Positions 29,988 through 39,442 of a stretch of 64,000 nucleotides of DNA are shown here, in pieces. The notes beneath the pieces were generated by a model. It was given only the letters and a program-made list of their open reading frames with translations, did no database searches and had not been told where the DNA came from. Position 1 is the first letter of the stretch. Every line of letters starts with the position of its first letter. Source of the DNA: Nitrososphaera sp. (GTDB lineage: Archaea > Thermoproteota > Nitrososphaeria > Nitrososphaerales > Nitrososphaeraceae); the NCBI GenBank assembly GCA_039938515.1, contig JBDUUL010000001.1:357760-421759 (forward strand). Reading direction: 5' to 3'. Made by a program: the position numbers and the translations under genes.

Positions 29988-31739
29988 TTGGTCACTGGCA
30001 ATCAGCGCAACGTGTCGATTCTAGAATTTTTTCCCTTGCCGACTATTCGAGAGAGGCAAAAGGAGGTACTATTAGGATTTGAATCCGCGATAAAGAGCGG
30101 TTTTAAGCATATCTTCTTCGAGGCGCCAACGGGCTTTGGCAAGAGCCCCGTAGCTATTGCTCTTGCATTGTATATGGGAAATTCTCATATTTGCACCGCT
30201 ACCAAGGACCTTCAGTCCCAGTACCTGCGCGACTTTCCGTTTATCTTTGATGTCAGGGGGAGGTCTAATTTTTCTTGCAACGTCAAGGAGGACATGGGAT
30301 TGTCGGAGACTTGCGAGTACGGCCCGTGTGTCAGAGACGACGGCTACGATTGCTCATTCAAGACCCGCCTTGCGGACTACAGGGTACTTGGAAGTGGCAC
30401 AAGAGAAGAGGCAGTCGTAATCGACAAGGTGGCTGAAAACCGGTACCGCGAGGACTTTGCAAAGAAATCCAGGCTGGTATCTCTCCACTGGAGGCCGTGT
30501 GAGTACTATGAACAAAAGTGGAAGGGGGCCAAGGCCAGCCACACTGTTTACAACTATCGCTACTTTCTCTCAGATTTTTTCTATGCAGGGAATACTCAAA
30601 AGAGAAACCTGCTAGTCTTTGACGAGGCGCACCAGCTAGAGTCAGAGGTCGGCGACTTTAGGAGTTTTACCATCCATCGGAACATGCTCAGGCTGGTTAA
30701 ACTGCAAATGCCTACATCAAGAACCGATGAAATAGAAGTTTGGCTGGAATTTTGCAGAGAATACCGGGAAAAGCTCGACGAGTTTGCAGACAAGGCGGCA
30801 AGAATCCTCGAGCGGAGCGACCAGCGGGTATCCATGGAGCCTTATACTGAAAAAAATGTAATAGATGCGGTAGAACGCGCCAAGACCTTGGGCGATTTGC
30901 TCAACGATATAAGGGCTAACAAGGATAACTGGATTGTCTCATCTCTTCAAAAGGACGCCAGCACCGGCGAACTCACAAGAGTCACGGTTACGCCGCTGGA
31001 CATTTCCTCTTATTTTGGGAGTGTCCTTGAGAAAGCTTCAGTCGCCTTGTTCATGAGCGCGACAATCCTCAGCAAAGAATACCTTTGCAAGACTGTCGGC
31101 TTGGCTCCGGATTCCGTAAAGTTTATTCGAATACCAGAGTCGGATTTCCCCGCCATAAACCGCCCGATTTACAATCAATCCGTCGCTTGGTTAAATGCAA
31201 GAACGATCGGTGAGAGCATGCCAAATATCATCCGCGCGGTAGACCAAATCATGAACAAGCACAAGGACGAGAAGGGCATTATACACACCACTTCGTATAC
31301 GCAGGTTGAAGCCATAGCGAACGGCCTCAGTCAGACAAATTCTGCACGCTTAATCCAGACAGGATCAAAGATTGAAAGAGACGAGGTTTTGCGGAGGCAC
31401 TTCAGGAGTAAAACCCCGAGCGTGTTGATTTCTCCGTCTCTCCACCAGGGCGTGGATCTTAAGGATGACCTTTCAAGGTTCCAGATAATCGTCAAGGTCC
31501 CGTATCCGGATTTGACCGATCGAAAGGTGGCCGCGCTTAAGCAGCGAAATCCAAGTTGGTACATGTGGGTAACGATACTCAGGCTTGTCCAGTCATACGG
31601 TCGTTCGGTTAGAAGCAAAGAGGATTTTGCGGCGACGTATATACTCGATAGCAGCTTCGATTACGTCCGGCGGAACTCGGGTGACATGTTCCCCCCTTGG
31701 TTTACCGAAGCAATTGTCCCGGCCGTGCGCTTGTCGTAG
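29988..31739 (+). CDS. XPD/Rad3-family Fe-S DNA helicase
   Basis: The 583-residue superfamily 2 helicase has Walker A APTGFGKS (46-53) and DEAH (212-215). Cysteines C97, C109, C114, C122 and C171 include the four that would bind the XPD-type [4Fe-4S] cluster. C-terminal helicase motifs (SPSLHQGVDLKDD and QSYGRSVRSKED) complete the fold. Such helicases unwind 5'-3' in repair. The start is TTG 29988, 9 nt after the ABC gene. The 3' end lies 38 nt before the archaeosortase gene. Confidence 0.92.
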   Translation: MVTGNQRNVSILEFFPLPTIRERQKEVLLGFESAIKSGFKHIFFEAPTGFGKSPVAIALALYMGNSHICTATKDLQSQYLRDFPFIFDVRGRSNFSCNVKEDMGLSETCEYGPCVRDDGYDCSFKTRLADYRVLGSGTREEAVVIDKVAENRYREDFAKKSRLVSLHWRPCEYYEQKWKGAKASHTVYNYRYFLSDFFYAGNTQKRNLLVFDEAHQLESEVGDFRSFTIHRNMLRLVKLQMPTSRTDEIEVWLEFCREYREKLDEFADKAARILERSDQRVSMEPYTEKNVIDAVERAKTLGDLLNDIRANKDNWIVSSLQKDASTGELTRVTVTPLDISSYFGSVLEKASVALFMSATILSKEYLCKTVGLAPDSVKFIRIPESDFPAINRPIYNQSVAWLNARTIGESMPNIIRAVDQIMNKHKDEKGIIHTTSYTQVEAIANGLSQTNSARLIQTGSKIERDEVLRRHFRSKTPSVLISPSLHQGVDLKDDLSRFQIIVKVPYPDLTDRKVAALKQRNPSWYMWVTILRLVQSYGRSVRSKEDFAATYILDSSFDYVRRNSGDMFPPWFTEAIVPAVRLS

Positions 31740-31743
31740 AACA

Positions 31744-31750
31744 TTTTTAT
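31744..31750 (+). promoter_or_regulatory. Possible TATA box for archaeosortase gene
   Basis: A tttttat run lies just after the helicase stop and about 30 nt before TTG 31778. The distance would give a nearly leaderless mRNA. Confidence 0.35.
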
Positions 31751-31777
31751 CTCGTTCTGAGTCAATCGCCTCCGGCA

Positions 31778-32812
31778 TTGTCCCGCGATACCGCCGCTCC
31801 TCCGCGCCAGAGCCAGGGCCAGACAATATTCGGGATAAACACCAGCATTGCGGTGACGCTTGTGCTCATTTCGCCTGTAATATTCACGCTCATTGCTTAC
31901 CCGGACTCCTTCAGCCTCTCCTGGAATCAGGGAAGAGGAGGCCTGCTGTTTGCTATGGCCTTTATCGCTGCGGAACTTGCAGGGATAAGATATCAGGTGA
32001 GCCAGAAGCGCTTTCTAATCGTTGTTGCGATGGCTGCCCTAACGATTGCCTACTTTGCGGCACTTCCATACGGTCTTTTGGCATGGATCAAGCATTCCGC
32101 CCCGTCTTTTGTTTCGCTTGCCGACAGCTGGCAGTGGATGTGGGACTTTGCCGTAATGTCCATCTTTGTCGTATCCTCACTCGTAGTGCTATTTGGAAGA
32201 AAATGGCATAAACTCGCAGCTGCAGGAGCGATCTACCTCATAGGAATGGCAGTAATCCTTTCACTGGACGCGTTCTTTCCATATGACAGCCTAGGGCCAC
32301 TGCAGTACGTAGTTCCAATTTATTTGCAGATAGATAGCGCCGTAATCTCCTTCATAGATACTTACATCGTCAACGTTGGACCTGCGGACCCGGCGAGCCA
32401 CGCACCGCCGTCAGTTGCGACAGGAAATCTAATAGTTCTCAACGGACTCCATGGCGGTATGGCTCTCAGAGTGTTCTGGCCATCTGCAGGCGTGCATAGC
32501 ATGATAATCTACACGCTTGTAATGCTTGCCTTTTTACTAAAGATGGATATGCCCACGAAGCGCAAGTTGATTTACTTTGCCATAGGGACAATCGGGACCG
32601 CCGCTGTTAATGTGGTCAGGATCACATCATTGTCCCTTTACGCGCTGGTCGTAACCACAGACGTGAATCAATGGCAAGCATTTCATTCGGTTGCCGGAGA
32701 GATAATGTTCCTTCCGTGGCTGGGCATTTACCTTGCAATTATCATGTTCACAGAGAACAAGCGCATAAAGTATTCCAGAGGCGCGTCGACCAGCAAAGCC
32801 GCCGCAGTGTAG
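31778..32812 (+). CDS. Thaumarchaeosortase (exosortase/archaeosortase family)
   Basis: The 344-residue polytopic protein (about eight membrane segments) matches the exosortase/archaeosortase fold. The family active-site trio is Cys, Arg and His. Here the Cys position reads S236 in WPSAGVHSM, while R281 (VVRITSL) and H303 (AFHSVAGE) are present. Archaeosortases cut and lipid-attach surface proteins with C-terminal sorting signals. TTG 31778 is preferred over the longer frame that overlaps the helicase, on promoter spacing and because the upstream residues look non-homologous. Confidence 0.85.
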   Translation: MSRDTAAPPRQSQGQTIFGINTSIAVTLVLISPVIFTLIAYPDSFSLSWNQGRGGLLFAMAFIAAELAGIRYQVSQKRFLIVVAMAALTIAYFAALPYGLLAWIKHSAPSFVSLADSWQWMWDFAVMSIFVVSSLVVLFGRKWHKLAAAGAIYLIGMAVILSLDAFFPYDSLGPLQYVVPIYLQIDSAVISFIDTYIVNVGPADPASHAPPSVATGNLIVLNGLHGGMALRVFWPSAGVHSMIIYTLVMLAFLLKMDMPTKRKLIYFAIGTIGTAAVNVVRITSLSLYALVVTTDVNQWQAFHSVAGEIMFLPWLGIYLAIIMFTENKRIKYSRGASTSKAAAV

Positions 32813-34787: not shown

Positions 34788-35861
34788 GTGGTTGACACAA
34801 TTCGGACACTCAAGCTTCTGGGCAAGTGGTCTGGAAATCGGGCAATGGGCAGGAGGAGGCCGCTTGTTGCAGTGTTCAGCATGACGCATTATTGTAATTT
34901 CTACTGTCCGATGTGTCCGTTTGGCGACCCGGACAAAGATGGTCAGATAAAACTCGCCCGTTCCAAGGACCTCACAACGCAGCAGTGGAAGTTAATTTTT
35001 GAAAAGGTGTCCGAGTATTGTGTCTGGTCGATAATCGAGGGCGGTGAGCCGACCAGCAGGCCGGACTTCATGGAGCTCGTTAGCTATCTTCATTCACTTG
35101 GGATGCCGATAACGCTCATCACCAATTGTTCACTTTTGCACACTATTGACCTCGATGAACTGAAAAGGCAGATTCAGTTCATAACATGCAGCATTGACTC
35201 CGTCCACCAGGAATCGTATTGCAAAGTCAGGGGCGTTCCGGCCGAGATCTATCGCAGGGTGATGGACAATCTGATACTGCTAAAGGAACATGGGGTGCCT
35301 CATTATTTCAACAGTGTGATAACAAAATTCAACACAGACGAGTTCATTGACAAGAGTTATTTTGAAAAGGCGCTAGGGCTTGGTGCAGACGCCGTTTCAT
35401 TTACATTCGTCGAGGACCGCTCAGATGTCGACTACTCTTTGCTTCCCGACAGACAAACAATGTCGAAAGTCAGCAGGAGCATTCTGGAGCATATCGACAG
35501 TAAAAAGCCGCCGTACGTAATGTTACCTCGTGAATATTTCGAACAGATAGCGGAGCATGGCAGAGGACATTTTGACGAGTGTGGTGTATGGAAGAGCATT
35601 TTTGTAAACGGGAATGGAACCGTGATGGTCCCCTGCTGGAAGTTCAGCTCACCAGAGAATACCTTCAACCTCTTGGAGAAAAGCGTCGGTGAGATATGGG
35701 ATGCACCTCAGTGGGACATAGCACGGACTTGCCACGATTGCCAGGTACTTGGATGCATCTGGTATTCCTCCCAACCTGTGACTACTTTTGCCAAAAATTA
35801 CATGAGGGGCCTCTCGAAAATAATCGGCCAGCATAGACCGGAACTAGAGTCCAATATCTAG
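34788..35861 (+). CDS. Radical SAM protein with SPASM-like auxiliary cluster
   Basis: The 357-residue protein has the radical SAM motif C36-x3-C40-x2-C43, GGEPTSRPDF at 85-94 and a C-terminal set C265, C283, C315, C318 and C323. That C-terminal set resembles a SPASM/twitch domain holding extra Fe-S clusters. SPASM enzymes often modify peptides or small molecules. The start is GTG 34788. The next gene begins 24 nt after its stop, making it the head of a cassette with a CysRS-like ligase and a GNAT. Substrate unknown. Confidence 0.85.
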   Translation: MVDTIRTLKLLGKWSGNRAMGRRRPLVAVFSMTHYCNFYCPMCPFGDPDKDGQIKLARSKDLTTQQWKLIFEKVSEYCVWSIIEGGEPTSRPDFMELVSYLHSLGMPITLITNCSLLHTIDLDELKRQIQFITCSIDSVHQESYCKVRGVPAEIYRRVMDNLILLKEHGVPHYFNSVITKFNTDEFIDKSYFEKALGLGADAVSFTFVEDRSDVDYSLLPDRQTMSKVSRSILEHIDSKKPPYVMLPREYFEQIAEHGRGHFDECGVWKSIFVNGNGTVMVPCWKFSSPENTFNLLEKSVGEIWDAPQWDIARTCHDCQVLGCIWYSSQPVTTFAKNYMRGLSKIIGQHRPELESNI

Positions 35862-35885
35862 GGCAACTGGATCTGCGCATGTGTT

Positions 35886-37052
35886 ATGGCCAGAATGCTA
35901 AAATTATTCGACCAAAGGTCTCGGCGCTTGGTACCAATCGGAGATGTTCAAGGGAAAAGACAGCCTGTGAGCATCATGCTCTGCGGTCCCACCGTCTACG
36001 ACAATCTTCACGTCGGGCACGCAAGAATGTTGCTGACGTACGATCTTGTTGCAAGAATATTGCGATATGCGGGTCATTCCGTTGAGGTGCTGCTCAATAC
36101 AACAGATATTGACGCCAAAATCTTTCAAAAGTCTCTGCAGAGGAAGGTGCCACCCGCAGAAATCTCAGATTGGTATTTCAGGGAAATGCTGCGCGATCTG
36201 GCCAGATTGAACATTTCCGAATTTACCCTTGCCAAGGTTTCCAATTACATGGGTTACGCAGGCAAGCTGGTGCAGGAATTGCTTTCGGAAGGGCTTGCCT
36301 ATTACTCGGCAGGCAGATATTATCTGAGGACAGGCCACGACCCGGGATGGGGCGGGATCTCGCACATGTCGCATGAAGAAATACAAGACTGTAGGCTGGA
36401 CATCGCCGAGTCCAAGCATTCGGCTCATGACATTCTGATTTGGAGCGCCGCAGAAGACGCATTTGATATCTGCCTGAGAGGCCAGGAGAAGCCGCCGGGC
36501 ATTCCTTGGTGGCACATGCAAGACACCTCAGTTGCAATGGCAAACTATGCAGGCGCGTACGACCTTCAGGGCGGAGCAGGGGAGCTTGCATATCCGCACC
36601 ACGAATCGCAACGTGCCCAGTTAGCCGCAATAACAGGCCGCGACTCGCCCGTCAGGGCTTTTACGTATGTAGGGCTTGTGACAGGAACGGCAGGCACAAA
36701 GATGTCAAAGTCGCTGGGAAACACAGTCAGGCTGACTGATGCCGTTGCGGCAAGCAGCGCAAATGCATTGAGGCTATTCTGCTTTTCTTCGAGCTACTCA
36801 AAGCCTCTGAAATTCTCCTGGGAGGCCCTGCAGAAATTTGAAAAAAAGGACAGACGCGTTATGGGAAGCATTCTGAGCGTCGCGGAAGATACCTCAGGAG
36901 GCAGTCCAAACTCCAAGCTGATGGGCAGGTTCATAGAGAGTCTTTGTGAGGATCTTGACACTGTTTCGGCTCTGGAGATTCTTGACTTGGCGCTATCCGA
37001 CGAAGATCCAAGCGCACTAGAAATGGCGAGGTTGCTTGGACTTCGATACTGA
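35886..37052 (+). CDS. CysRS-like class I ligase (MshC-like), altered zinc site
   Basis: The 388-residue protein has the class I signature HVGHA (42-46), KMSKS (272-276) and LCGPTVYDN as in cysteinyl-tRNA synthetase. True CysRS binds Cys through a zinc held by two Cys, His and Glu. Here the first Cys (C33) and H238 remain, but the second Cys is lost (WHMQDTS, 209-215) and the HHENE motif is HHESQ (238-242). The anticodon domain is largely absent, as in MshC, the mycothiol ligase. A non-tRNA or non-Cys ligase is likely. If no normal cysS exists elsewhere, it would need to be the tRNA enzyme. Confidence 0.8.
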   Translation: MARMLKLFDQRSRRLVPIGDVQGKRQPVSIMLCGPTVYDNLHVGHARMLLTYDLVARILRYAGHSVEVLLNTTDIDAKIFQKSLQRKVPPAEISDWYFREMLRDLARLNISEFTLAKVSNYMGYAGKLVQELLSEGLAYYSAGRYYLRTGHDPGWGGISHMSHEEIQDCRLDIAESKHSAHDILIWSAAEDAFDICLRGQEKPPGIPWWHMQDTSVAMANYAGAYDLQGGAGELAYPHHESQRAQLAAITGRDSPVRAFTYVGLVTGTAGTKMSKSLGNTVRLTDAVAASSANALRLFCFSSSYSKPLKFSWEALQKFEKKDRRVMGSILSVAEDTSGGSPNSKLMGRFIESLCEDLDTVSALEILDLALSDEDPSALEMARLLGLRY

Positions 37053-37056
37053 GCTG

Positions 37057-37788
37057 ATGGAGGAGGGGGAGTGGGGCTTTTGCTCCATGTGGACAGAAGC
37101 GTTTGAACCTTTCTGCGGCCGGCTGCTTTTAAACAAGAGCCTGGCGCAGGACTATTTTTTCAATCGATGCTCCTTGAACGGATGTCGAGATCTGGACAGG
37201 GAAATTCAAAAACTCCGGTCGATTCGCAATGACCAGGGAATTGAATTCGCTGTCTATGAGCGCTCGGATTCACTTGCAAAAAAAGACCTTGCCCTGATCG
37301 ATGTCATGTATACGCTAGTTAAGCCAGTCACCGAAGCAGCCGGCCCGCGTTTGAAAGGCATCGAGGATTTACACTATGAAGTCATTGAGGCAGGAGACGA
37401 TGCGTTGCGCAGTGAATGGGGGAAAGTCTTTTGCAGGTCATTCGAGGTGCCCCATTGGTCAAGCGAAGTTTTGCGCATCACGAATCAGGACAGGTTTAGA
37501 GAAACTGTAAGCCTAAAGCTCGCAAGATCAGGTGAAAAATTTGTGGGCTGTTTAGCGGCTCATTCACACCGAGGCTTGGCCGGGCTCTATTGCCTCGGGA
37601 CACTGCCTGAGTGGAGGCGCATGGGGGCCGCTACAGCCCTCCTGAGAAGCACCACCTGTGAAGGAGCTGGGCAAATCTACCTGCAGGCGCTCAGGAGTGA
37701 ACAAAACGTAGCTTTCTACGAAAGAGAGGGATTTGTCGTGAAGTACTCAAAGTCGATATACTCTCTGAATTCGCATCCGACCCTGTAA
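37057..37788 (+). CDS. GNAT-family N-acetyltransferase, two-domain
   Basis: The protein (243 residues from ATG 37057; the frame opens at TTG 37036) has a diverged N-terminal half and a C-terminal GNAT core. The core has GLYCLGTLPEWRRMGAATALL, where RRMGAA is the acetyl-CoA loop, and late NVAFYEREGFV. The gene starts 4 nt after the CysRS-like gene. It could acylate the product of the ligase, as MshD does in mycothiol synthesis, but this is inference. A UUCG hairpin follows its stop by 46 nt. Confidence 0.82.
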   Translation: MEEGEWGFCSMWTEAFEPFCGRLLLNKSLAQDYFFNRCSLNGCRDLDREIQKLRSIRNDQGIEFAVYERSDSLAKKDLALIDVMYTLVKPVTEAAGPRLKGIEDLHYEVIEAGDDALRSEWGKVFCRSFEVPHWSSEVLRITNQDRFRETVSLKLARSGEKFVGCLAAHSHRGLAGLYCLGTLPEWRRMGAATALLRSTTCEGAGQIYLQALRSEQNVAFYEREGFVVKYSKSIYSLNSHPTL

Positions 37789-37834: not shown

Positions 37835-37854
37835 GAAAAATTTTCGAATTTTTC
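37835..37854 (+). terminator. UUCG-tetraloop hairpin after the radical SAM cassette
   Basis: GAAAAATT (37835-37842) and AATTTTTC (37847-37854) form a perfect 8-bp stem closed by TTCG. The T5 run in the 3' arm and its place after the GNAT stop suit a transcript end or 3' stabiliser. Confidence 0.5.
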
Positions 37855-37929: not shown

Positions 37930-38223
37930 ATGTCGCCATTTTTCGTACCAGAGACTGGCAGCAGGCGCCCCTCATGCCAAGTCTTGGGGTGCTTTGAGCC
38001 TGCGGCGGTCTACGTCGTCGTCGAGGAAACAGAGGCCGACGCGTGCAAACTCAGCGTCATCCCCGTTCTTGAAACCGATGCTCGAGATGACAGAGAGCTT
38101 AATGCCTTCAAACTGATACTGCATCTCTGCTCGCGACACGATTATGACTTCAAGTATCTGCTGAGAAGCAATGAACTCGAGATCGCTAGGCGCCGCCATC
38201 TTACGCTGCGCGAGATCCAATAG
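37930..38223 (+). CDS. Hypothetical small zinc-type protein
   Basis: The 97-residue protein has C16/C21 and a later LCSRHD (about residues 66-71), a possible treble-clef-like metal site. It has a region of strands (AAVYVVVEE) and a basic C-terminus. The pattern resembles the small protein at 46562-46867. Its function is not known; it lies between the cassette and ino1. Confidence 0.6.
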   Translation: MSPFFVPETGSRRPSCQVLGCFEPAAVYVVVEETEADACKLSVIPVLETDARDDRELNAFKLILHLCSRHDYDFKYLLRSNELEIARRRHLTLREIQ

Positions 38224-38353: not shown

Positions 38354-39442
38354 ATGGGTAGAAAGGTCAAGGTAGCGGTTGCAGGCGTCGGAAACTGTGC
38401 ATCTGCCCTGATTCAAGGCACAAAATTCTATGATCCGGCCGCAAAAGCCAAGCGACCCGAAGGCGACAGGATTGGCCTTACCGCCTTTAACTTGGGTGGC
38501 ATAGAACCCCAAGACATCGAGTTCGTTGCTGCGTTTGACGTTGCGGATACCAAAGTTGGCAAGGACCTCTCTGAAGCAATGTTTGCGTCTCCAAATAACA
38601 CCGTCAGGATAGTAAAGGACGTTGGTCGTTTCGATCTCAAGGTCCAGAAAGGAGAAGTGCTTGACGGCATCGGCAGGCATCTGTCGCAAAAGGTAAAGGT
38701 GTCAAGTGCTGCTCCGGTCAACGTCGCCAAAGTACTCAAAGAGTCGGGTGCAGAGGTCCTCTTGAACTACCTGCCGGTCGGGAGCAGGCGTGCGACCCAA
38801 TACTACGCGGAGAGCTGTCTCGACGCGGGCTGTGCCTTTGTAAACGCAATCCCGGTTTTTATAGCGTCGACCCCCAAATGGCAGCAAGCGTTTGCCGGCA
38901 AAGGGCTGGTCTGCGCCGGAGATGACGTCATGAGCCAGCTTGGCGCGACGGTTGTTCACAAGACCTTGGTCAAATTATTCGTGGACAGAGGGGTCAAGAT
39001 CGACCAGACATACCAGCTTAACATCGGAGGCGACATGGACTTTTACAATATGCTCGACGAAGACAGGCTTGAGGACAAGAGGATTAGCAAGACCAGCGCG
39101 GTGGCTGCAATGGCACCTTATGAGATTCCAATGCGGATCGGTCCTTCAGACTATGTCTCATTCTTGGAAAACGACAAAGTCTGCTACATTTCCCTAAAAG
39201 GCCAGTATTTTGGCGGCATACCAGTCGAACTTGACTTGAAACTAAAAGTTGTCGACGCCTACAACAGTGCGGGAGTTATGATAGACGCAGTGAGAGCTGT
39301 CAAAATAGCCCTTGACAGGGGCATATCCGGCCCCCTTGAGAGCATCTCGGCGTATTGTTTCAAGCATCCGCCAATTCAAATGCCCTATTCTGTGGCCAAG
39401 GCGAATTTTCTAGAGTTTGTTGAGGGAAAGAGAGAGCGTTAA
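38354..39442 (+). CDS. ino1: Inositol-3-phosphate synthase
   Basis: The 362-residue enzyme turns glucose 6-phosphate into inositol 3-phosphate. The N-terminal NAD motif is VAVAGVGNCASALIQG, with NYLPVGSRRATQYYAE in the middle and NIGGDMDFYNM plus SKTSAV later, all typical of archaeal and actinobacterial Ino1. Archaea use the product mainly for phosphoinositol lipids. ATG 38354 is supported by the promoter position. It stands alone, 95 nt before smc. Confidence 0.94.
   Translation: MGRKVKVAVAGVGNCASALIQGTKFYDPAAKAKRPEGDRIGLTAFNLGGIEPQDIEFVAAFDVADTKVGKDLSEAMFASPNNTVRIVKDVGRFDLKVQKGEVLDGIGRHLSQKVKVSSAAPVNVAKVLKESGAEVLLNYLPVGSRRATQYYAESCLDAGCAFVNAIPVFIASTPKWQQAFAGKGLVCAGDDVMSQLGATVVHKTLVKLFVDRGVKIDQTYQLNIGGDMDFYNMLDEDRLEDKRISKTSAVAAMAPYEIPMRIGPSDYVSFLENDKVCYISLKGQYFGGIPVELDLKLKVVDAYNSAGVMIDAVRAVKIALDRGISGPLESISAYCFKHPPIQMPYSVAKANFLEFVEGKRER

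What the first reader, a model, noticed from the sequence alone, without database searches (positions are those of the whole stretch)
34788..37788. Radical SAM / CysRS-like ligase / GNAT cassette: a candidate undescribed pathway
Three codirectional genes sit within 3 kb with gaps of 24 and 4 nt and end in a perfect hairpin. A SPASM-like radical SAM enzyme, a class I ligase derived from cysteinyl-tRNA synthetase and a GNAT acyltransferase make a plausible enzyme set. Relatives of the ligase and the GNAT (MshC and MshD) act in succession in mycothiol synthesis. The altered ligase zinc site argues against simple mycothiol synthesis. A new thiol, amino-acid conjugate or modified peptide is a reasonable hypothesis; ino1, 0.5 kb downstream, makes inositol phosphate and could be unrelated.
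Basis: partly seen in the sequence, partly recalled or inferred. Interest (0 to 1): 0.75.

Follow-up and report, generated by a model that had tools for sequence, protein, structure and literature searches.

The report
Archaeal CysRS-like ligase and acetyltransferase pair
In soil ammonia-oxidising archaea and their relatives, a cut-down copy of the enzyme that loads cysteine onto tRNA travels with an acetyltransferase as a near-inseparable two-gene unit, which probably makes an unknown acetylated amino-acid compound, perhaps an archaeal protective thiol; the radical SAM gene beside it is a bystander.

Summary
The three ORFs exist as described, but the cassette is really two genes. The ligase (LIG, 35886-37052) and GNAT (37057-37788) form a class-wide unit. 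In 300 Nitrososphaeria genomes, 87 (window genome included) have both, 4 have an aberrant LIG alone, and none has the GNAT alone. Three genomes hold both unlinked. Two Nitrososphaera genomes lack exactly this pair between rSAM and ino1. The radical SAM gene is decoupled (24 genomes have it alone), ino1 adjacency is old synteny, and the hairpin is no better than shuffles.

LIG is a CysRS paralogue without the anticodon-binding tail. It arose independently of MshC, and an ordinary CysRS sits elsewhere in the genome. The zinc ligand Cys209 is Asp in nearly all members. That does not exclude cysteine: the same Asp occurs in full-length enzymes that are the only CysRS in five near-complete archaeal genomes without SepRS. 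Mycothiol is unlikely: two closed genomes with the pair lack any PIG-L deacetylase.

A ~100-aa companion protein, always divergent from LIG, ends in Tyr in 57 of 58 distinct sequences; the window's genome has one elsewhere. Most likely: tRNA-independent Cys adenylation and amide ligation, then N-acetylation; acceptor unknown.

The parts
35886..37052 (+). LIG: truncated CysRS-like (class I) ligase, 388 aa, with HIGH (HVGH) and KMSKS; zinc site C33/D213/H238/Q242; no anticodon-binding tail
37057..37788 (+). GNAT: 243-aa tandem-GNAT-fold acetyltransferase, partnered with LIG
34788..35861 (+). Radical SAM/SPASM-like protein, 357 aa; neighbour by synteny, judged not part of the module
37835..37854 (+). 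8-bp perfect inverted repeat (GAAAAATT..AATTTTTC), not better than chance folding
37930..38223 (+). ORF97: small protein of unknown function found only in Nitrososphaera-type loci (W, L008, L009, L010, L015); not judged part of the module
38354..39442 (+). ino1: inositol-3-phosphate synthase; ancestral synteny (Alba..INO1-SMC), kept where LIG+GNAT are absent

Best explanation
LIG and GNAT are two consecutive enzymes of a dedicated, tRNA-independent amino-acid conjugation pathway. LIG, a CysRS paralogue that lost the anticodon-binding tail, adenylates an amino acid (most likely L-cysteine, held by a metal with Cys/Asp/His ligands) with ATP and transfers it to the amine of an unidentified acceptor. 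GNAT then acylates the free alpha-amine with acetyl-CoA. The product would be an N-acyl-cysteinyl conjugate, analogous to but not the same as mycothiol. A ~100-aa companion protein with an invariant C-terminal Tyr, divergently encoded beside LIG in most lineages and present elsewhere in the window's genome, is an accessory, regulator or carrier. In some lineages a zincin domain and a thioredoxin-like protein join. The radical SAM gene, ino1 and the hairpin are not part of it. Shown here: the pairing, the co-occurrence, the domain loss, the Asp substitution, and the existence of a separate CysRS. Inferred: catalysis, cysteine as the substrate, order of steps, and the product class.
For: Pairing: 65 of 70 distinct truncated loci with data have the GNAT directly downstream, against 0 of 41 full-length CysRS loci. 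Genome co-occurrence is 87 both / 4 LIG only (one family, f16) / 0 GNAT only, including three genomes with the genes unlinked. The pair is absent, with rSAM and INO1 adjacent, in L176 and L177. LIG lacks CysS_C, and the ammonia oxidisers' members also lack a DALR_2 hit. Fold: AF2 pLDDT 90.7, and PDB matches to CysRS and MshC at TM 0.82-0.88. Every LIG genome examined for it has a separate full-length CysRS, except two draft genomes (G200, G029) where none was recovered. Cysteine remains plausible: Asp-type full-length enzymes are the sole CysRS in G337, G323, G485, G436 and G416, and no SepRS is over cut-off there. Pocket residues T73, W209 and H238 are invariant. GNAT matches tandem GNATs, including mycothiol synthase 2c27 with its substrate, at fold level. 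A thioredoxin-like WCPHC protein lies beside the module in f4/f18/f20.
Against: No acceptor-making gene is consistently linked, and no product is known. GNAT is not MshD by sequence (MshD only E 0.45 and absent from the profile search), so its substrate could be something else. GNAT-fold aminoacyl-tRNA transferases also match (MprF, A-PGS), so a tRNA-dependent variant is possible. The fourth zinc ligand varies (E, H, or Q in the window). The window's LIG and GNAT are faster-evolving than their relatives. The four f16 genomes have an aberrant LIG and no GNAT.
Confidence: 0.5

Rival explanations
1. Scaffold or carrier reading: the ~100-aa companion protein with the invariant C-terminal Tyr is the acceptor or carrier on which LIG and GNAT act, with the zincin as a releasing protease in some lineages, somewhat as in peptide-scaffold (PEARL-type) pathways.
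For: Companion always divergent and within 1.6 kb when nearby (55 of 55), 0 of 41 near full-length CysRS; C-terminal Tyr in 57 of 58; copy in the window's genome with C-terminal Tyr although unlinked; present beside the GNAT-less f16 LIG; zincin fused to GNAT.
Against: A class I aaRS-like ligase activates the amino acid, not a protein C-terminus, so an invariant C-terminal residue is not the expected acceptor. The companion is divergent rather than in the operon. No companion was found near the Nitrosocosmicus-like (g2) LIG loci. It could equally be a regulator or subunit.
Confidence: 0.15
2. tRNA-dependent reading: LIG charges a tRNA or tRNA-like acceptor stem without needing the anticodon, and GNAT acts as an aminoacyl-tRNA transferase (L/F-transferase or Fem-like).
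For: A CysRS lacking the anticodon domain that charges a special tRNA is known (CysRS*, PMC9437257); GNAT fold search includes MprF and A-PGS; deep LIGs keep part of DALR_2.
Against: No tRNA gene is next to the module in 20 loci or near it in the window; no Rfam match; MshC shows that truncation can go with tRNA independence.
Confidence: 0.15
3. Non-catalytic or regulatory reading: LIG is a cysteine sensor or GNAT regulator.
For: Rapid divergence in the window's lineage; variable fourth metal ligand.
Against: HIGH, KMSKS-region Lys and pocket residues are invariant or nearly so over 30 divergent sequences.
Confidence: 0.1
4. One reading: rSAM, LIG and GNAT form one pathway.
For: Codirectional and close in the window and other Nitrososphaera loci.
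Against: 24 of 300 genomes have rSAM alone and 50 have LIG+GNAT without rSAM at E<=1e-40; rSAM kept where the pair is absent; different rates, 75-80% against 42-46% identity; no conserved rSAM neighbours outside the genus.
Confidence: 0.04
5. True mycothiol synthesis.
For: MshC/MshD-like pair, ino1 nearby, GT4 and PIG-L genes in the window's genome.
Against: No PIG-L hit in closed genomes G131 and G135 that have the pair; no MshA over cut-off; LIG 148 bits against the MshC cut-off of 485; LIG does not group with MshC; MSH not detected in archaea (PMC7278568).
Confidence: 0.03

Closest known systems
MshC (L-cysteine:GlcN-Ins ligase of mycothiol synthesis)
   Same: CysRS-derived, anticodon tail lost, about 390-410 aa, similar fold (TM 0.84-0.88), partnered with a GNAT
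   Different: Separate derivation (MshC groups with bacterial-type CysRS, on a long branch); Asp in place of the second zinc Cys; far below TIGR03447 cut-off; acceptor pathway (MshB-type PIG-L) missing in closed genomes
MshD (mycothiol synthase)
   Same: Tandem GNAT fold, follows the ligase
   Different: 243 aa rather than about 315; no significant sequence match
CysRS (TIGR00435), including Asp-type archaeal CysRS
   Same: Catalytic domain and pocket; nearest full-length relatives share the Asp
   Different: No CysS_C tail; second copy beside a full-length CysRS; linked to GNAT
CysRS* of Desulfobacterales (charges SelC*)
   Same: CysRS paralogue without anticodon domain
   Different: No tRNA gene beside it; linked to GNAT. 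Compared from literature only (PMC9437257)
MetRS-paralogue peptide ligases with GNAT (PMC2922099)
   Same: aaRS paralogue plus GNAT predicted to make a non-ribosomal amide
   Different: MetRS family, other partners, other taxa; compared from literature only

Membership tests
MshC equivalog (TIGR03447) | Score over curated cut-off (485.1 bits) | tested here: not met
   148 bits
MshC equivalog (TIGR03447) | Phylogenetic grouping with MshC | tested here: not met
   LIG separated from MshC+CysRS by a 100/99 branch; caveat: MshC and the window's LIG are long branches
Mycothiol pathway | MshB-type PIG-L deacetylase present | tested here: not met
   Three PIG-L in the window's genome but none in closed G131 and G135, which carry LIG+GNAT
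Mycothiol pathway | MshA glycosyltransferase over cut-off | tested here: not met
   Best 88.4 against 462.5 bits in own genome
Mycothiol pathway | Mycothiol in cells | not testable with these tools
   Needs chemistry; none reported in archaea (PMC7278568)
Cysteine--tRNA ligase (TIGR00435) | Score over cut-off (340 bits) | tested here: not met
   210.5 bits
Cysteine--tRNA ligase (TIGR00435) | DALR/anticodon-binding C-terminal part | tested here: not met
   No DALR_2 or CysS_C hit in the window's LIG or L048; full-length relatives have them
Cysteine--tRNA ligase (TIGR00435) | Second zinc Cys (E. coli C209) | tested here: not met
   Asp213; but the sole full-length CysRS of five genomes also have Asp
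Class I aaRS catalytic core | HIGH and KMSKS motifs | tested here: met
   HVGH, KMSKS
MshD (mycothiol synthase) | Sequence homology to MshD | tested here: not met
   phmmer E 0.45; no MshD in profile search at 0.01
GNAT superfamily | GNAT domain and fold | tested here: met
   PF13508 over cut-off; Foldseek to tandem GNATs
Radical SAM/SPASM | Radical SAM domain plus SPASM | tested here: inconclusive
   Radical_SAM 65.6 bits, over cut-off; SPASM 21.1 against 21.5, just under
CysRS* (SelC*-specific) | Linked SelC*-type tRNA gene | tested here: not met
   No such tRNA beside the module in 20 loci; SelB not tested

The most novel reading that the evidence does not exclude
A previously undescribed archaeal pathway in which a CysRS-derived ligase and a GNAT build an acyl-cysteinyl product with, or on, a ~100-aa protein whose C-terminal tyrosine is invariant. 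It would be a second, independent recruitment of CysRS to small-molecule or carrier-protein chemistry, widespread in soil ammonia oxidisers and deeper Nitrososphaeria.
Probability: 0.2. Interest if true: 0.88.

Novelty: new variant of a known kind. Interest (0 to 1): 0.64.

Why it matters
Glutathione and mycothiol have not been detected in archaea (PMC7278568, PMC7554672), and their thiol chemistry is poorly known. A conserved, gain-and-loss-coupled ligase/acetyltransferase pair gives a concrete, testable candidate for a new metabolite. It would also show that CysRS was recruited to amide synthesis at least twice. As a by-product, the data point to archaeal CysRS enzymes that work with Asp in place of a zinc Cys thought to set cysteine specificity.

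Tried and rejected
rSAM as a module member (rejected on distribution and on loci without the pair). ino1 as a pathway gene (kept where LIG+GNAT are absent). Hairpin as terminator (z = +0.42). Mycothiol (no PIG-L in closed genomes, no MshA over cut-off). Linked tRNA (none). Pfam and PDB profile searches for the companion protein and the zincin domain gave nothing reliable. The thioredoxin-like protein has no homologue in own-genome searches (one search had no positive control and one search covered 62%), so it does not look general. Papers searched for mycothiol/MshC in Thaumarchaeota, Bathyarchaeota CysRS, LMW thiols in AOA and CysRS paralogues found no description of this module; that library is open-access only. 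L083 was first counted as LIG and reclassified as full-length.

Full report
WHAT IS IN THE WINDOW. Three intact codirectional ORFs lie at 34788-35861 (radical SAM, GTG start), 35886-37052 (LIG) and 37057-37788 (GNAT), with gaps of 24 and 4 nt. The hairpin at 37835-37854 is a perfect 8-bp A/T-rich repeat, but the stretch folds no better than shuffles (z +0.42). The window lies in G000, a 2.56-Mb, 99.8% complete genome. Members of its genus share contig lengths with records titled Nitrososphaera sp. (G169:C9 = JAJUFP010000007.1, G143:C63 = JAHEZV010000043.1). The genome has a separate full-length CysRS on contig C2, so LIG is not the only CysRS.

RADICAL SAM IS A BYSTANDER. In 300 Nitrososphaeria genomes the rSAM is found in 61 at E<=1e-40. 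Leaving out the window genome, 36 of these also have the GNAT/LIG pair, 24 have rSAM without it, and 50 genomes have the pair without rSAM at that threshold. In Nitrosotalea the rSAM lies elsewhere or is missing. In two Nitrososphaera genomes (G137 = L176, G216 = L177) the order is rSAM-INO1-SMC with LIG and GNAT absent. rSAM is 75-80% identical between the window and its relatives, LIG only 42-46%. Outside the genus rSAM has no conserved neighbours. INO1 keeps its place with or without the pair, so its proximity is old synteny.

LIG AND GNAT ARE A UNIT. In distinct loci with enough sequence, 65 of 70 truncated LIGs have the GNAT directly downstream; 0 of 41 full-length CysRS do (the single 'full' row with GNAT is read here as L087, a truncated LIG in a long frame). 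A GNAT profile finds 87 of 300 genomes. Ten of these had no listed LIG at first; fetching them showed an Asp-type LIG beside the GNAT in nine, and a LIG fragment cut by the contig end in the tenth, L199. An LIG profile with match counts adds only G001, G005, G013 and G017, all family f16; of these only G013's LIG was read and it is aberrant. G245's extra match is a second full-length CysRS. The table is therefore 87 both, 4 LIG only, 0 GNAT only. In G264, G194 and G184 the genes are present but apart, so co-occurrence does not depend only on joint deletion. Many within-family switches (g1, g2, g5, f4, f7, f20) are concordant. Genomes are not independent samples, so no p-value is given.

WHAT LIG IS. 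It is a CysRS catalytic domain without the C-terminal CysS_C tail. Deep members keep a weak DALR_2 hit, the ammonia oxidisers' members none. The AlphaFold model (pLDDT 90.7) matches CysRS and MshC about equally. In the tree, LIG (without L083, a full-length enzyme) is one side of a 100/99 branch, and MshC falls among bacterial-type CysRS. MshC and the window's LIG are long branches, so MshC's exact place is unsure, but LIG and MshC do not group. The zinc site: E. coli C28, C209, H234 and E238 (ligands as known for CysRS) correspond to C33, D213, H238 and Q242. Asp213 is invariant in 30 aligned sequences. Position 242 is Glu in deep members, mostly His in ammonia oxidisers and Gln in the window.

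THE ASP SITE DOES NOT EXCLUDE CYSTEINE. Full-length CysRS with the same Asp (WHIEDTA) occur in other Thermoproteota. In G337, G323, G485, G436 and G416 (95-100% complete) it is the only CysRS found by two searches, and no SepRS exceeds its cut-off there. It is therefore inferred to be their working CysRS. G188 has a full-length Asp-type enzyme and also a LIG. LIG thus probably derives from an Asp-type CysRS and may well still use cysteine.

NOT MYCOTHIOL. The window's genome has three PIG-L proteins, but the single-contig genomes G131 and G135, which carry LIG and GNAT, have none. No MshA scores over cut-off. LIG is far under the MshC cut-off and INO1 under the mycothiol-INO1 cut-off. A review reports no mycothiol and no MshC in archaea (PMC7278568). 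Other thiol routes proposed for ammonia-oxidising archaea, ergothioneine and gamma-glutamylcysteine, do not use these genes (PMC7554672).

GNAT. The model (pLDDT 88) matches tandem GNATs, among them VipF and mycothiol synthase with substrate (2c27, TM 0.60), but also aminoacyl-tRNA-dependent MprF/A-PGS domains at lower rank. Sequence profiles do not place it in MshD. Its substrate is open.

OTHER PARTNERS. A ~100-aa protein (c10) lies within 1.6 kb of LIG in 55 distinct loci, always divergent, mostly with 12-220 nt between the frames in deep lineages, and never beside full-length CysRS (0 of 41, though most of those loci show under 1.5 kb upstream). It ends in Tyr in 57 of 58 distinct sequences. 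No Pfam or PDB relative was found. A search of 62% of the window's genome found one copy at G000:C10:199080-199331, also ending in Tyr. It was found next to the f16 LIG that lacks GNAT. A zincin domain (HELVHxxQ..RPTEIEAY) is fused to or follows the GNAT in f4/f18/f20, and is a separate gene a few kb upstream in Nitrosotalea. A thioredoxin-like WCPHC protein adjoins the module in f4/f18/f20.

MECHANISM. Best supported: LIG adenylates an amino acid, probably Cys, and transfers it to an amine; GNAT acetylates the result. Catalysis and product are inferred from family knowledge (MshC/MshD), not shown. The companion protein could be carrier, acceptor or regulator. Rivals and tests are given in their sections. 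No description of this module was found in the open-access library searched; subscription papers could not be checked.

Noticed in passing
L152, L153, L156, L162, L163, L165 (other Thermoproteota and G188): Full-length CysRS with Asp instead of the second zinc Cys; the only CysRS in at least five near-complete genomes without SepRS over cut-off.
   Followed up: partly
L262:19080-19331 (G000:C10:199080-199331) and 57 other sequences: Small companion protein with LD.DEGIR motif and near-invariant C-terminal Tyr, divergent from LIG where linked; no known family.
   Followed up: partly
L104:6469-6984, L088:10901-12214, L048:4181-4678: HExxH zincin domain (HELVHxxQ, RPTEIEAY) fused to the GNAT or next to it, separate in Nitrosotalea; no Pfam family over cut-off.
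   Followed up: partly
L104:3833-4198, L089:11930-12292: Thioredoxin/glutaredoxin-like protein (WCPHC) beside LIG+GNAT in families f4, f18 and f20.
   Followed up: partly
window 34788-35861: The radical SAM protein is mostly single-copy and about 70-80% identical across Nitrososphaeraceae and part of Nitrosotalea, with no conserved neighbours outside the genus; function unknown.
   Followed up: partly
L091-L094: Relatives in genus g2 (Nitrosocosmicus-like, a guess from memory) carry a divergent LIG (WHFQDHE) and GNAT followed by a HemB-like gene.
   Followed up: no
window 31697-32812: Membrane protein without Pfam hit, reminiscent (by eye only) of archaeosortases, in the conserved block before pol IV and Alba.
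   Followed up: no
window 35886-37788: LIG and GNAT of this genome diverge faster than those of other Nitrososphaera (long branch, fourth zinc ligand Gln).
   Followed up: partly
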